Origin: a virus
Direction: 5' to 3' (one strand)
IMG/VR virus record: IMGVR_UViG_3300032240_001991
Coordinates: 159,128 to 223,127 of that record
DNA: 64,000 nt
Shown: in pieces, positions 16,559 to 35,161 of the stretch
Position numbering within the stretch: the stretch's first letter is position 1
Layout: every line of letters starts with the position of its first letter
Program-made: the position numbers and the translations under genes
The notes under the pieces: generated by a model
What the model was told of the DNA's origin: nothing
The model's database searches: none
What the model saw: the letters and a program-made list of their open reading frames with translations, nothing else

Positions 16559-16632
16559 GCCCAATTAGCTCAAAAGTAGAGCGCACGACTGATAATCGTA
16601 AGACGGAGGAGCGTTACCTCCATTGGGCACCA
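16559..16632 (+). tRNA. tRNA-Ile(GAU) with unusual T-loop
   Basis: Acceptor GCCCAAT/ATTGGGC, anticodon loop CTGATAA in ACGA/TCGT, encoded CCA. The T-stem GGAGG/CCTCC is perfect but its loop is AGCGTTA instead of the expected TTCRANY. Confidence 0.75.
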
Positions 16633-22684: not shown

Positions 22685-24727
22685 ATGAAGAAAATATTAC
22701 TTAATCCGTGGTGGTCACTTTTAACATTAGTAGCCATTGTGCTGGTTAGAATTTGGGATCCTAGTTTTGTTGAAAGCGTAAGATTAAGATATTTTGATCA
22801 ATTAGTTACAAGTCGTCCTACTACAGAAATTCCGGTCAATGTTGTAAATGTAGACGAAGCTGCATTAGACAAATATGGTCAATGGCCGTTTAGTAGAGAT
22901 GTGTATGCTGATATAATTAAGGAGCTTTACGCTAGGAACGCAGGTCTAGTAGTTTTTAACGTACTGATGCCCGAGGCCGATCGTTTTAAGCAAGATGCCG
23001 TCCTCAGCAAAACCATGCAGGAATATCCTGTGGTACTACCCACACTAGGCAACAATAAGCAGAAAAATACTAGCGTAATAGCTCCAGCTACTGTAATAGG
23101 CGCTGATCCAAAAGGATTAGTTGCAGAATATCCTGGATTGATCGCTAATGTTCCTGAACTAGAACAGGCTGCTGTGGGTGTAGGAGTGGTTAATACTTTT
23201 CCTGAAATTGACGGCGTTGTTCGTCGTACTCCGTTAGTAATTTATAGTCAAGAGCATTTGAGACCAAGCCTTGCCCTAGAGGTGTTGCGTGTAGCAGCAG
23301 GGGATGCGGCTTTTCAAATCAAGCTAGACGAGAACGGCGTTAATGCTTTACGTATTCCTCAATTTGGTAAAATAACCACAGACAATATAAGTAGAGTCTG
23401 GATTGATTGGAGTCAACGCCCAAAGAGTTATAGTCTCGCTAATCTTCCTAAAGATTTTAATAAACAGATTGTTATAGTGGGTGCCAGTGCGGCAGGTATT
23501 GCTAATCCTGTAGCGACTAGTCGAGGTGAAATTTGGCCTCAAGATTTACAAGCATCAGTTATTGGAACTATGCTAGCCGGTTCTACCATTCAACGACCTG
23601 CATACGCTGACGCTTTAGAATTAGGCGTTCTAATTACGGCTGGCATTATATTAATTGTATTAGCAAGGTGGTTATATGTAGGTATTGTGGCTACAGTAAT
23701 TTTTGCTGTTGGCGGTGTATTAGGTAGTATGTATGTTTATCAACACTATCTATTTTTATTTGATGCTACTACTTTTACCGCAGGCATAATCTTAATTGCA
23801 TTACACGCTTACATGGTAAAATTTCTAGATGAGTTTTTTCAGAAGCAAATGATTAGAAAACAATTCCAAAGTTATCTAAGTCCAGACCTAGTCGCTAAAC
23901 TAATTAAAGATCCAAGCCTACTAAGATTAGGTGGTGAAGAAAAAGAATTGAGTATTATGTTTACTGATGTTCGTGGGTTTACTGCAATTAGCGAACACTA
24001 CGGTAAGAATGTACAAGGGCTAACGTCTATTATGAATCGCTATATGACTGCAATGACTAAAAGAATACTAGAGAATGACGGAACTCTAGACAAATATATT
24101 GGCGATGCTCAAATGGCATTTTGGAACGCTCCGCTTGATGAATCTAAGCACTGCAAAGATGCTGTTAAAAGTGCCTTAGATATGTTAGGAGACCTAGAGA
24201 AATTTAACAAGGAAGTTGAACTAGAAGGTGTTCCTCCTTTTGGTATGGGTATTGGAATTAATACCGGTGTAGTTGTAGTAGGTAATATGGGGTCTGAACA
24301 AAGGTTTGATTATACCTGCTTAGGTGACGCAGTAAATCTTGCTAGTAGACTTGAAGGACAAAGCAAAAACTACGGTGTCCTAATTGTATTAGGCCCGGTT
24401 ACTGCTGATCGTGTTAAAGACGAATACCAAGTTATAGAACTTGATTGCATTGCAGTCAAAGGAAAAACACAGGGTGTAAACATATTTACTGTGTTAGGTC
24501 CAATAGGTTGCGTAAGTCAAGAAGATGTAGACTTGCATAATCAAATGCTGTCTTATTATAGGGCAACAGATTTTAATACTGCAATAATATTATGTAATTC
24601 GTTAAAAGGAAAACTTAACGGATTAATGGATCAGTATTACGACATGTGGATGCAACGTTGCGAAGATATGAAGTGGACTACCTTATCAGAAGACTGGGAC
24701 GGAGTATATCGAGCTACTTCAAAATAA
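22685..24727 (+). CDS. CHASE2-domain class III adenylate/guanylate cyclase
   Basis: A 680-aa membrane sensor. An N-terminal membrane segment, a periplasmic CHASE2 domain (about residues 35-300), three membrane segments (about 305-380) and a class III cyclase domain (about 420-610) are in the canonical order. FTDVRGFTAISE and KYIGDAQMAFWNAP carry the metal-binding Asp residues, and YTCLGDAVNLASRLEG is the transition-state segment. It should make cAMP (or cGMP) in response to a periplasmic cue. It begins 2 nt after the second curlin gene, so it is part of the same operon. Confidence 0.92.
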   Translation: MKKILLNPWWSLLTLVAIVLVRIWDPSFVESVRLRYFDQLVTSRPTTEIPVNVVNVDEAALDKYGQWPFSRDVYADIIKELYARNAGLVVFNVLMPEADRFKQDAVLSKTMQEYPVVLPTLGNNKQKNTSVIAPATVIGADPKGLVAEYPGLIANVPELEQAAVGVGVVNTFPEIDGVVRRTPLVIYSQEHLRPSLALEVLRVAAGDAAFQIKLDENGVNALRIPQFGKITTDNISRVWIDWSQRPKSYSLANLPKDFNKQIVIVGASAAGIANPVATSRGEIWPQDLQASVIGTMLAGSTIQRPAYADALELGVLITAGIILIVLARWLYVGIVATVIFAVGGVLGSMYVYQHYLFLFDATTFTAGIILIALHAYMVKFLDEFFQKQMIRKQFQSYLSPDLVAKLIKDPSLLRLGGEEKELSIMFTDVRGFTAISEHYGKNVQGLTSIMNRYMTAMTKRILENDGTLDKYIGDAQMAFWNAPLDESKHCKDAVKSALDMLGDLEKFNKEVELEGVPPFGMGIGINTGVVVVGNMGSEQRFDYTCLGDAVNLASRLEGQSKNYGVLIVLGPVTADRVKDEYQVIELDCIAVKGKTQGVNIFTVLGPIGCVSQEDVDLHNQMLSYYRATDFNTAIILCNSLKGKLNGLMDQYYDMWMQRCEDMKWTTLSEDWDGVYRATSK

Positions 24728-29850: not shown

Positions 29851-29873
29851 ATGTATATTTGAGGAGAAGAATT

Positions 29874-30680
29874 GTGAATAAGTTTAAAAAGTTAATAACT
29901 TCAGTCACTGTAATGTTAGGTTTACTTTTTTCTTTTATTAGTGTGCCAACTGTTGTTACAGGAGCATTATTCTTTTCTCCTTCAGCAGAAGCTGCTGAAT
30001 GTACGTTATATGAGACTATACACCCTAACTTTCCGTTAACTGGTGCTCACTTATCTACTGGTAAGTGTAGTACGTGTGCGAGTTGCCATGCTGGTGGAAT
30101 ATTCCTAGGAACTCCAAAAATCTGTGCAACCTGTCACAACGGAAATCCTAGTGGTCAAATTTCATCTGCTACTGTAGGGAAATCAGCATTGCATCCTCCA
30201 ATTGGAACTACAAGTTGCGATTCTTGCCATAATACTACTAGCTTTACTGCTACATGGAAAATGAATCACGCTAGCGTGAGTGGACAAAGATGCGACAGCT
30301 GTCATAACGGTTCCTACACCACTTATGCGGCCATGGGTAAACCAAGAGATCACATTCCAACCACTGCAGACTGCGGTACTTGCCACGTTACTAAAGACAC
30401 TAGCTCACACAATAGCGATGCTTGGGGCATGTCGCTTGCTGAAATACATCGTGGTATCACATCAGGCTGTGTTACTTGCCATGACGGTGCGCACCATCCA
30501 GCACTAGGTAAGATAGACTATGCCCCCGGACATCCTAGCACCAGCGATGCCTGCGAAACTTGCCACAGCATTAATAATACTTTCAAATGTGCGTCGTTGA
30601 TTCATGACAAGATGTTTATGTATTCGTTAAAACAAGGCCTAGCAGGCTTAATTAAAACTTCAGATAAAAATCGAATATAA
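29874..30680 (+). CDS. Multihaem c-type cytochrome 2 (seven CxxCH)
   Basis: About 268 aa from the GTG with a good GAGGAGA site (an upstream TTG at 29859 is rejected because it lies in the ribosome site). The signal peptide ends at about SAEA-AECT. Motifs CASCH, CATCH, CDSCH (twice), CGTCH, CVTCH and CETCH give seven predicted c haems, with extra His (HPPIG, HAS, HIPT, HHPA) as distal ligands. It is a paralogue of the preceding cytochrome and resembles the cytochrome c3-like proteins of proteobacterial extracellular electron transfer. A terminator follows. Confidence 0.9.
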   Translation: MNKFKKLITSVTVMLGLLFSFISVPTVVTGALFFSPSAEAAECTLYETIHPNFPLTGAHLSTGKCSTCASCHAGGIFLGTPKICATCHNGNPSGQISSATVGKSALHPPIGTTSCDSCHNTTSFTATWKMNHASVSGQRCDSCHNGSYTTYAAMGKPRDHIPTTADCGTCHVTKDTSSHNSDAWGMSLAEIHRGITSGCVTCHDGAHHPALGKIDYAPGHPSTSDACETCHSINNTFKCASLIHDKMFMYSLKQGLAGLIKTSDKNRI

Positions 30681-32494: not shown

Positions 32495-32623
32495 TTTTAG
32501 GATGCCTACAGCAACGTAAATTACTCATGTCAAGAGAGTGGTCGCGGGTTCAATTCCCGCCTAGTCTTAGGACTAGTAGCTCAGTTGGTAGAGCACTAAA
32601 TTGTGTATCCTGTTTTATTTTGC
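32495..32623 (+). repeat. Flank-repeat element, copy 1 (contains the permuted tRNA)
   Basis: A 20-nt left repeat (TTTTAGGATGCCTACAGCAA) and a 17-nt right repeat (ATCCTGTTTTATTTTGC) enclose the permuted tRNA. AGGAT pairs with ATCCT. The same two repeats occur at 34293-34364 around a short different core. Confidence 0.75.
32524..32597 (+). tRNA. Circularly permuted tRNA, Asp(GUC)-like
   Basis: The 3' half (32524-32568) comes first: CTC-ATGTCAA-GAGAG anticodon part, TGGTC, T-arm GCGGG-TTCAATT-CCCGC, acceptor CTAGTCT. After TA the 5' half follows (32570-32597): GGACTAG, TA, D-arm GCTC-AGTTGGTA-GAGC, A, CT. Joining the end (CT) to the start (CTC) yields a perfect CTCTC/GAGAG anticodon stem with loop ATGTCAA, anticodon GUC. 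The flanks can pair (AATT/AATT, AGGAT/ATCCT) beside the junction. No CCA is encoded, unlike its neighbours. Confidence 0.7.
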
Positions 32624-32737: not shown

Positions 32738-34027
32738 ATGAAAGATTATAAAATTCAAGACATTGGGCTAGCCGCGTGGGGCCATAAAGAAATTGCTATC
32801 GCAGAAACTGAAATGCCAGGATTGGTTGCTATTCGAGAAGAATATCGATCACAACAGCCACTAAAAGGTGCTAGAATTGCAGGGTCATTACATATGACTA
32901 TTCAGACTGCTGTTTTAATTAAAACTCTAGTAGAACTAGGTGCCAGTGTACGCTGGTCGAGTTGTAATATCTTTTCAACGCAAGATCATGCAGCAGCCGC
33001 AGTTGCAGACTTAGGTATTCCTGTGTTTGCTTGGAAAGGCGAAACAGAAGAAGAATATTGGTGGTGCATTGAACAGACGTTAAAAGGACCTGATGGTTGG
33101 TCGCCTAACATGATCCTCGACGACGGCCACGACCTTACTTGGTATGTAATGAATAAGTGTCCACAGCTTGTTGATAACATTGTAGGAGTTAGTGAAGAGA
33201 CCACTACAGGAATACATCGTATTATTGAAGCTATTAATAGAGGTGCGTTTCCATTCCGTGCTATTAACGTTAACGACAGTGTAACCAAAAGTAAGTTTGA
33301 TAATTTATACGGTTGTAGAGAAAGCCTAGTTGATGCAATTAAACGCGCAACTGACGTTATGATTGCAGGTAAGACCGCAGTCGTATGTGGGTTCGGCGAC
33401 GTAGGTAAAGGCTCTGCAGAAGCACTACGTGCACTTAGTGCCCAGGTTTGGGTTACTGAAGTTGATCCTATTTGCGCACTACAAGCAGCAATGGAAGGTT
33501 ATCGTGTAGTTACTATGGAATATGCTGCTGATAAGGCAGACATTTTTGTAACCGCTACGGGCAATATCAATGTTATTACACACGACCATATGCAGGCAAT
33601 GAAAAATAATGCTATTGTTTGCAACATTGGACATTTTGATAACGAAATTGATATTGCTGGATTAAAGAAATATACCTGGGAAAATATTAAACCTCAGGTA
33701 GATCATGTCATCTTCCCAAATGGCAAGCGTATTATTATACTTGCTGAAGGTCGATTAGTTAACTTAGGTTGCGCTACTGGGCACCCTAGTTATGTAATGA
33801 GTAACTCATTTACTAATCAAGTATTAGCCCAAGTTGAATTATGGACTAATTCATCTGCTTATGAAAAAGGCAAACTTTACATATTGCCAAAACATCTAGA
33901 TGAAAAGGTAGCTAGGTTGCATTTAGCACAGATAGGTGCTACAATTACTACATTAACTAAGGAACAGGCTGAATACATCGGTGTAACAGTTGATGGTCCA
34001 TTTAAGTCTGATTCTTATAGATATTAA
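32738..34027 (+). CDS. ahcY: S-adenosylhomocysteine hydrolase
   Basis: A 429-aa enzyme that splits S-adenosylhomocysteine to adenosine and homocysteine, relieving product inhibition of methyltransferases. [15 protein letters not shown] is the N-terminal substrate loop, [12 protein letters not shown] the family signature, [16 protein letters not shown] (about residue 213) the NAD loop, and the C-terminus ends KSDSYRY as in the family. Length fits the shorter AhcY type. It sits inside the tRNA region without a partner MetK, but the window encodes several methyltransferases that would profit. Confidence 0.96.
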
Positions 34028-34292: not shown

Positions 34293-34364
34293 TTTTAGGA
34301 TGCCTACAGCAAATAAAAAATCAAACTTTGAAATTTGAAAAATGCGCATCCTGTTTTATTTTGC
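34293..34364 (+). repeat. Flank-repeat element, copy 2 (short core)
   Basis: The same left and right repeats as at 32495-32623, here pairing as AGGATGC/GCATCCT with TTTTATTTT after the stem. The core is AT-rich with a TCAAA/TTTGA hairpin and no tRNA part. It may act as a terminator-like or small RNA element. tRNA-Trp starts at its 3' end. Confidence 0.7.
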
Positions 34365-34456: not shown

Positions 34457-35161
34457 GTGAATAACATAATTTCAGAAGGACTAGAATATAACACCAATAT
34501 TGGATTAAATTATTCTTTCTTATACATGGAAGTTCCTAAGGTATGTTGCACAGTAATTAAAAGAACCCTTCAAAAAATAGAAGGTTGCGAAAAAGATATA
34601 AGCGAAATCCCAATAAAAAGTATGACGACATTAAAAGGAATAAGCAATTCTGGAATGTCTTTTCATGATATATTTCATTCTAAAAAATTATTTAAATTTA
34701 CATTTATCAGGAATCCTTATACACGAATTTTATCTTGCTACCTTGATAAAATTCAATCAAAAAACATTGTGCCTGATTCGCAACAATATCACGAATATTA
34801 CGATGCTTTAAATTTAGATTTTAATAAAGAAATTTCTTTTAAAGAATTTTTACTAGCTCTTAAAAAAGACGAAAATTTAACTAAAAATACGCATTGGACT
34901 CCGCAGTTTCTTTTAATTAAAGATTCTAGAATTTCCTATGATTTTATAGGTAGATTTGAAAATTTTGAAAATGATTTTAAATTTGTATTAGAACAGATTG
35001 GAAAGCCAGACGCAATTATAGCAAATCATTTTCCTGAAAAAATTAGGACTAATGCTAACTTCAGGATAAAAGAATTCTACGGAGAGACAGAAAAAGCCTT
35101 AGTTTCTGAACTTTACGAATGTGATTTTCGTAGATACAATTATTCAATAGACAGTATTTAA
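34457..35161 (+). CDS. Sulfotransferase-family protein
   Basis: A 234-aa protein from a GTG start. FLYMEVPKVCCTVIKRTLQ (about residues 22-40) resembles the 5'-phosphosulfate loop of PAPS-dependent sulfotransferases, and FTFIRNPYTRILSCYLDK is the 3'-phosphate-binding RNPxxR segment of the Sulfotransfer_2 type. FIGRFENFENDF follows as in that family. It probably sulfates a surface carbohydrate, using host PAPS. No PAPS synthesis genes are visible. Confidence 0.82.
   Translation: MNNIISEGLEYNTNIGLNYSFLYMEVPKVCCTVIKRTLQKIEGCEKDISEIPIKSMTTLKGISNSGMSFHDIFHSKKLFKFTFIRNPYTRILSCYLDKIQSKNIVPDSQQYHEYYDALNLDFNKEISFKEFLLALKKDENLTKNTHWTPQFLLIKDSRISYDFIGRFENFENDFKFVLEQIGKPDAIIANHFPEKIRTNANFRIKEFYGETEKALVSELYECDFRRYNYSIDSI

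What the first reader, a model, noticed from the sequence alone, without database searches (positions are those of the whole stretch)
32495..32623. Circularly permuted tRNA gene
The 3' half precedes the 5' half. When the free ends are joined, all arms form perfectly: acceptor GGACTAG/CTAGTCT, D, T, and an anticodon stem CTCTC/GAGAG that is completed only by the junction. The flanks pair with each other next to the junction, which would hold the ends for ligation. Permuted tRNAs are known mainly from some algae and archaea; one in a phage implies a circularising, RNA-ligating process. Anticodon GUC duplicates a normal tRNA-Asp 190 bp away.
Basis: seen in the sequence. Interest (0 to 1): 0.88.

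Follow-up and report, generated by a model that had tools for sequence, protein, structure and literature searches.

The report
Phage Y RNA mimicking a tRNA
The "inside-out" tRNA is real and conserved, but it is best read not as a tRNA gene: it is one of at least four small RNAs in this giant phage that share the same paired ends and are probably held by a phage-encoded relative of the Ro60 protein, and it carries a complete tRNA-like shape, anticodon loop included, that could act as bait for tRNA-handling enzymes.

Summary
In detail: 32499-32611 encodes T arm, acceptor arm, D arm and an anticodon arm split between positions 28 and 29, in circularly permuted order. It is not a lone oddity. Homologues occur in hundreds of phages, with strong covariation across the split. 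The acceptor arm is closed by a short cap with no CCA, position 73 is random, and no RNA ligase of the families tested was found, so a ligated permuted tRNA is unlikely. The element matches Rfam YrlA (bacterial Y RNA, a known circularly permuted tRNA mimic) end to end, below Rfam's cut-off. Its paired flanks are a Y-RNA basal stem with a fixed frame, AGGnnnn-(n)-CAGCAA ... nnnnCCTGT. The 327 kb genome holds four such frames (chance about 0.1): two directly upstream of a divergent Ro60 gene (Pfam DUF2828; predicted fold matches Ro60/Rsr, Z 12.6-17.5), two in the window's tRNA array. The frame and DUF2828 co-occur in other phages, including named ones. What looks new is the complete anticodon arm with tRNA-like loop rules and more than 20 different anticodons, several permutations of the tRNA domain, and the DUF2828-specific stem. 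Likely role: Ro-bound bait or decoy for enzymes acting on tRNA anticodon arms; the RNP is inferred, the role conjectural.

The parts
32499..32611 (+). Y RNA with circularly permuted tRNA domain (tRNA-mimic, YrlA-like)
   Evidence: (RF02553 49.9 bits, E 1.6e-10, full length)
32499..32505 (+). 5' strand of basal stem AGGATGC (pairs with 32605-32611)
   Evidence: covaries among paralogues (AGGATAC/GTATCCT, AGGATGC/GCATCCT, AGGTTCn/nGAACCT, AGGTTAG/CTAACCT, AGGATAG/CTATCCT)
32509..32514 (+). CAGCAA motif, invariant in the aligned relatives of this type (some distant members read CAGCRA or CCGCAA); proposed Ro contact
32524..32538 (+). 3' part of anticodon arm: CTC (29-31), loop ATGTCAA (anticodon GTC 32529-32531), GAGAG (39-43)
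32544..32560 (+). T arm GCGGG-TTCAATT-CCCGC
32561..32576 (+). acceptor arm CTAGTCT / GGACTAG closed by cap TA (32568-32569); no CCA
32579..32594 (+). D arm GCTC...GAGC
32596..32597 (+). positions 27-28 of the anticodon stem (CT), pairing with 42-43 (AG) across the permutation
   Evidence: covariation
32605..32611 (+). 3' strand of basal stem GTATCCT, followed by conserved GTTTT
34297..34352 (+). second, minimal frame RNA without tRNA domain (AGGATGC CTACAGCAA ... GCATCCT); first 16 nt identical to the main element
   Evidence: G000:193424

Best explanation
32499-32611 encodes a phage Y RNA. Its own 5' and 3' ends pair into a basal stem (AGGAUGC/GUAUCCU with a CAGCAA side motif) that is most likely gripped by the phage's divergent Ro60 (DUF2828, genome position 137335-138735, outside the window). 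The remainder folds, without cutting or ligation, into a circularly permuted tRNA: capped acceptor arm, T and D arms, and an anticodon arm (GUC) formed as a 3-bp hairpin plus 2 bp across a three-way junction. Shown by sequence: permuted fold, covariation, conserved frame, four copies in one genome, two of them next to the Ro-like gene, and the Ro fold prediction of that gene's family. Inferred: expression, DUF2828 binding, no ligation. Conjecture: the tRNA domain is bait that brings tRNA-recognising enzymes to the Ro ring or soaks them up, with host anticodon nucleases the most attractive target because the anticodon loop is kept tRNA-like while its identity varies.
For: Rfam YrlA match over the whole model, 49.9 bits, E 1.6e-10. 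Homologues with the same permuted order lie directly upstream of Ro60 genes in phages SM23, FuzzBuster, Tonenili, Sparky, BearBQ, BONAISHI and Sebata and upstream of Ro in actinobacteria. Same-frame relatives of the window element: 60 members in 41 locus pieces, several per phage. G000 has four frames, two immediately upstream of its DUF2828 gene; 12 resampled genomes gave one hit in all. DUF2828 model: best PDB matches Ro60/TROVE/Rsr, E 2e-8 to 3e-6, Z 12.6-17.5, next unrelated Z 8.3; an enlarged Ro HMM hits the G000 protein at 7.3e-9. Frame RNAs with a tRNA domain co-occur with DUF2828 in 14 of 17 records, against 0 of 5 records that matched the same DNA pattern by chance. Check in named phages: frames beside DUF2828 in Synechococcus BUCT-ZZ01, Listeria LMTA-148 and Bacillus BcoS-136; permuted elements with CAGCAA in Salmonella Si3 and Mycobacterium DuncansLeg. 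In Listeria phage CKA15, three very abundant RNAs are transcribed within 2 kb upstream of an Rsr-like gene (PMC12282133).
Against: No RNA, binding or phenotype data for this phage. Score below Rfam's YrlA gathering cut-off (49.9 v. 69), as for 18 other phage elements tested. The element lies 53 kb from the Ro-like gene. The anticodon hairpin is only 3 bp, and the minimum-energy fold prefers another local hairpin. Frames were not found within 2.5 kb of DUF2828 in Vibrio phi-ST2 and Sinorhizobium phiM7, and three true-frame records (38-85 kb) show no DUF2828. Some frames enclose an ordinary colinear tRNA (L441, L453), which a pure 'mimic' model does not explain.
Confidence: 0.86

Rival explanations
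1. A genuine permuted tRNA gene: the transcript is circularised by joining CT to CTC, then opened at the acceptor by RNase P and RNase Z or exonucleases and given CCA, yielding a second tRNA-Asp.
For: Complete cloverleaf, intact GUC anticodon with U33 and A37 A38, junction covariation.
Against: Cap of 2 nt leaves no room for a discriminator plus leader; relatives have stable tetraloop-like caps, random N73, varied position 1 and rarely CCA; some relatives have no anticodon loop; no RtcB or RNA_ligase match in this genome; ends form a conserved basal stem shared with non-tRNA RNAs.
Confidence: 0.05
2. Two halves of decayed tRNAs, for example the inner halves of a tandem duplication.
For: The order 3' half then 5' half with matching acceptor strands is what such a duplication would leave.
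Against: Conserved frame and covarying stems in dozens of phages.
Confidence: 0.01
3. The AGG/CAGCAA/CCTGT frame is a processing or mobile cassette of phage tRNA arrays rather than a Ro-binding stem, and tRNA-like inserts of several orders ride in it.
For: Inverted-repeat ends, location in tRNA arrays, colinear tRNA-Arg inside frames in L441 and L453, different permutations in one frame.
Against: Frames without any insert tRNA sit directly upstream of DUF2828; frame presence tracks DUF2828; homologous permuted RNAs elsewhere sit beside Ro genes.
Confidence: 0.06

Closest known systems
YrlA, bacterial Y RNA (Rfam RF02553; Chen et al. 2014; Salmonella YrlA structure 6CU1)
   Same: Basal stem from the two ends plus T arm, capped acceptor arm and D arm in circularly permuted order; usually beside a Ro60 (rsr) gene.
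   Different: Keeps a complete anticodon arm with a 7-nt tRNA-like loop (YrlA is described as matching only D, T and acceptor arms, PMC8394870); different basal-stem motif; Rfam cut-off not reached; partner is DUF2828, not TROVE.
Phage Y RNAs of TROVE-bearing phages (Myrna, Sebata, Sparky, BONAISHI and others)
   Same: Same permuted domain; many also carry the split anticodon arm.
   Different: Other basal-stem motif, partner detectable as TROVE; Myrna's copy is annotated as an ordinary tRNA-Asp.
Putative Y RNAs of Listeria phage CKA15 (PMC12282133)
   Same: Abundant ncRNAs upstream of an Rsr-like gene; a related P100-like phage has two CAGCAA frames there.
   Different: Not described as permuted tRNAs; the frame is not reported there.
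Circularly permuted tRNA genes of algae and archaea (reviewed by Soma 2014)
   Same: 3' half precedes 5' half.
   Different: Those are circularised and cut to make real tRNAs; here the features point to a linear mimic.
Two-piece (permuted) tmRNA
   Same: Permuted tRNA-like domain with the acceptor strands joined by an intervening piece.
   Different: That is cut into two pieces and aminoacylated with a CCA end; none encoded here.

Membership tests
YrlA / bacterial Y RNA | 5' and 3' ends pair into a basal stem | tested here: met
   AGGATGC/GTATCCT, covarying among paralogues
YrlA / bacterial Y RNA | permuted tRNA-like domain with T, capped acceptor and D arms | tested here: met
YrlA / bacterial Y RNA | Ro60 orthologue in the same genome | tested here: met
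   Divergent Ro-like DUF2828 at G000:137335-138735, with two same-frame RNAs just upstream; the fold was predicted for a relative, not for this protein itself
YrlA / bacterial Y RNA | RNA gene next to the Ro gene | tested here: not met
   This copy lies 53 kb away, in a tRNA array; sister copies are adjacent
YrlA / bacterial Y RNA | Rfam RF02553 gathering score | tested here: not met
   49.9 bits v. 69, so it is called YrlA-like, not a filed member
YrlA / bacterial Y RNA | physical binding to Ro/Rsr | not testable with these tools
   needs pull-down or CLIP
Circularly permuted tRNA gene | reversed order of halves completing a cloverleaf | tested here: met
Circularly permuted tRNA gene | acceptor end that can be processed to a tRNA end (discriminator, CCA) | tested here: not met
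   2-nt cap; relatives lack CCA in 57 of 60, random N73
Circularly permuted tRNA gene | enzymes for joining the ends | tested here: inconclusive
   No RtcB or RNA_ligase in the phage record; PF09511 search had no positive control; host enzymes unknown
Circularly permuted tRNA gene | joined RNA product | not testable with these tools
   needs RNA from infected cells
Ro60 (for DUF2828) | Helical-repeat plus vWA fold of Ro60 | tested here: met
   AF2 model of the L344 homologue, pLDDT 82.5; PDB matches 9l5y, 9kop, 2nvo, 1yvr
Ro60 (for DUF2828) | Pfam TROVE PF05731 score | tested here: not met
   No match at E 0.001 in G000; matches DUF2828/DUF7788 instead

The most novel reading that the evidence does not exclude
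Giant phages run a Ro60-like (DUF2828) RNP system with families of Y RNAs that display real, interchangeable anticodon arms in several permutations, serving as decoys or traps for host defence nucleases that cut tRNA anticodon loops.
Probability: 0.25. Interest if true: 0.88.

Novelty: new variant of a known kind. Interest (0 to 1): 0.74.

Why it matters
It turns an apparent freak tRNA into a testable RNP system: a phage Ro60 relative of otherwise unknown function (682 named phage records carry it) gets a candidate RNA partner with a recognisable stem, and the retained, varied anticodon arms suggest what the tRNA mimicry of Y RNAs may be for. It also warns that tRNA annotation in phages both misses such RNAs and mislabels them (Myrna gene 166).

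Tried and rejected
PF05731 and a six-sequence phage Ro profile both missed the G000 Ro-like gene, and for a while the element looked Ro-less; a broader local HMM found it. An exact 31-base search and a neighbour-protein search found no near relative. The pattern scan mixes true members and chance hits; the chance hits served as controls. An AACAG/CTGTT pseudoknot was considered and dropped because the extra bases do not covary (read off the members by eye). Chen 2014, Wang 2018 and the 2020 Annual Review are not held, so it could not be checked whether the anticodon arm was noted there. Papers naming DUF2828 in the held library are about plants only. The frames were chosen for paired ends, so the basal stem was not used for the covariation statistic.

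Full report
Observation. The element is present as described. It lies in a tRNA array of 28-29 genes in a 326,658-base virus record. The permuted order is 3' half (part of the anticodon arm, T arm, acceptor 3' strand), a 2-nt cap, then the 5' half (acceptor 5' strand, D arm, positions 26-28). Standard tRNA finders do not report it.

It is conserved. A blastn search with the element hit mycobacteriophages Myrna and Phabba in the same permuted order, with a compensatory change across the junction: positions 28/42 are T/A here and C/G there. A search with the Myrna copy hit 230 phage records. Several copies lie immediately upstream of genes annotated as Ro-like RNA-binding proteins. That pointed to the Y RNA YrlA, a known circularly permuted tRNA mimic (PMC11472068, PMC8394870). 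The window element matches RF02553 over its full length at 49.9 bits, below the gathering score of 69. None of 18 related phage elements passes that score either, so current annotation misses this group.

Statistics of the permuted fold. Two pattern scans of IMG/VR that did not involve the anticodon arm, plus the named phages, gave 107 non-redundant phage elements; 56 came from Ro-linked actinobacterial loci. With fixed geometry, both distal pairs (27-43, 28-42) are Watson-Crick in 86 of 107 phage and 41 of 56 bacterial elements, against shuffle means of 14.7 and 7.5 (maxima 26 and 16) and low counts when slid. In 60 of 107 phage elements a complete anticodon arm is formed; U33 in 57, A38 in 55, positions 36-37 are UA, GG or CA in 55, and 23 different anticodons occur. 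Bacterial loops obey these rules less strictly. Position 73 is random, position 1 varied, CCA rare, and caps are short and often GNRA/UNCG-like. This is a fold kept tRNA-like but not a tRNA end that can be charged.

The flanks define a family. A relative in L164 shares AGGATRC, CAGCAA and GTATCCTGTTTT with the window element while all tRNA-domain stems differ with compensation. A scan for the flanks found dozens more; 60 members in 41 locus pieces were catalogued, often two or three per phage, with basal stems of at least five sequences. The tRNA domain appears in several forms: split anticodon arm (16, including the window), complete anticodon arm 3' of the D arm so that the opening lies in the variable region (6), other forms without a clear anticodon loop (24), and a few with an ordinary colinear tRNA (L441 and L453 also score as tRNA).

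The partner. PF05731 and an initial Ro profile found nothing in this genome. A Ro HMM from 75 bacterial and 25 phage sequences found a 466-aa protein at G000:137335-138735 (E 7.3e-9) and a 58% identical orthologue in a 364 kb phage. Pfam names it DUF2828 plus DUF7788. An AlphaFold model of a homologue (L344 ORF, mean pLDDT 82.5) matches Ro60 proteins best: 9l5y E 2e-8, 9kop Z 17.5, 1yvr (Ro autoantigen) Z 14.9, D. radiodurans Rsr Z 12.6, with the next fold at Z 8.3. Two frame RNAs sit directly upstream of the gene in each of the two genomes. In the whole of G000 a strict frame search gives four hits: 137145, 137260, 191626 (window 32499) and 193424 (window 34297), against one hit in 12 resampled genomes together; the 364 kb phage has seven.

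Co-occurrence. DUF2828 occurs in 19 of 56 tested records and never with TROVE; 14 of 17 records with a true frame RNA that has a tRNA domain have it, against 0 of 5 records that matched the same DNA pattern by chance (assignment of true members by the tRNA domain is mine). In some loci the RNA ends just before the gene, for example 23 bases in L420. As a check on sequences not used before, eight named phages with DUF2828 were fetched: clear frames in Synechococcus BUCT-ZZ01, Listeria LMTA-148 (two) and Bacillus BcoS-136; permuted elements with CAGCAA in Salmonella Si3 and Mycobacterium DuncansLeg; a weaker candidate in Aeromonas Ah1; none in Vibrio phi-ST2 and Sinorhizobium phiM7 within 2.5 kb. 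DUF2828 is already called 'RNA-binding' or 'Ro-like' in some of these records, and Y RNAs were proposed for three abundant transcripts upstream of an Rsr-like gene in a P100-like Listeria phage, so the Ro link itself is not wholly new.

How it most likely works. The basal stem should be the handle for the Ro-like ring, as in known Y RNAs; the tRNA domain faces outward. For Salmonella YrlA a role as competitive inhibitor of an anticodon nuclease has been suggested (PMC7790460), where that tRNA-like domain was not a nuclease substrate. An RNA with a genuine anticodon loop would be a better decoy. Whether the phage uses it so, or to bring an exonuclease to structured RNA as in D. radiodurans, cannot be told from sequence; I give the decoy reading about one in four.

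Verdict. The element is a Y-RNA-class tRNA mimic of a DUF2828/Ro60 system, a new variant by its anticodon arm, its frame and the range of permutations.

Noticed in passing
window 34297-34352 (+): A 56-nt frame RNA (AGGATGCCTACAGCAA ... GCATCCTGTTT) between tRNA-Arg and tRNA-Trp, without tRNA domain; probably a minimal Y RNA.
   Followed up: partly
G000:137145-137319 (outside the window): Two frame RNAs in tandem directly upstream of the DUF2828 gene.
   Followed up: yes
L441:4425 and L453:9020: Ordinary colinear tRNA-like sequences (scored as tRNA by Rfam) enclosed in the same AGG/CAGCAA/CCTGT frame; function unexplained.
   Followed up: partly
phage relatives, anticodon loops: Positions 36-37 follow a rule (UA, GG or CA; A36 almost absent), which recalls the recognition needs of position-37 modification enzymes.
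   Followed up: no
NC_011273 95152-95223 (L003:1476-1547): Myrna gene 166 'tRNA-Asp' is the 3' half of a permuted Y-RNA-like element, so a misannotation.
   Followed up: yes
window 29859-30680: Multihaem cytochrome c7/c3-like protein in a jumbo phage.
   Followed up: no
window 22685-24727: CHASE2 sensor plus nucleotide cyclase domain protein in the phage.
   Followed up: no
window 32738-34027 and 34457-35161: S-adenosylhomocysteine hydrolase and a sulfotransferase encoded inside the tRNA array.
   Followed up: no
window 16559-16629: A tRNA found by Rfam (57 bits) but missed by ARAGORN.
   Followed up: no
L386:284-761: A permuted tmRNA (RF04321, 133.5 bits) in a phage contig that also carries a frame RNA.
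   Followed up: no
L511 (Listeria phage LMTA-148): DUF2828, two frame RNAs and RtcB lie within 4 kb of each other.
   Followed up: no
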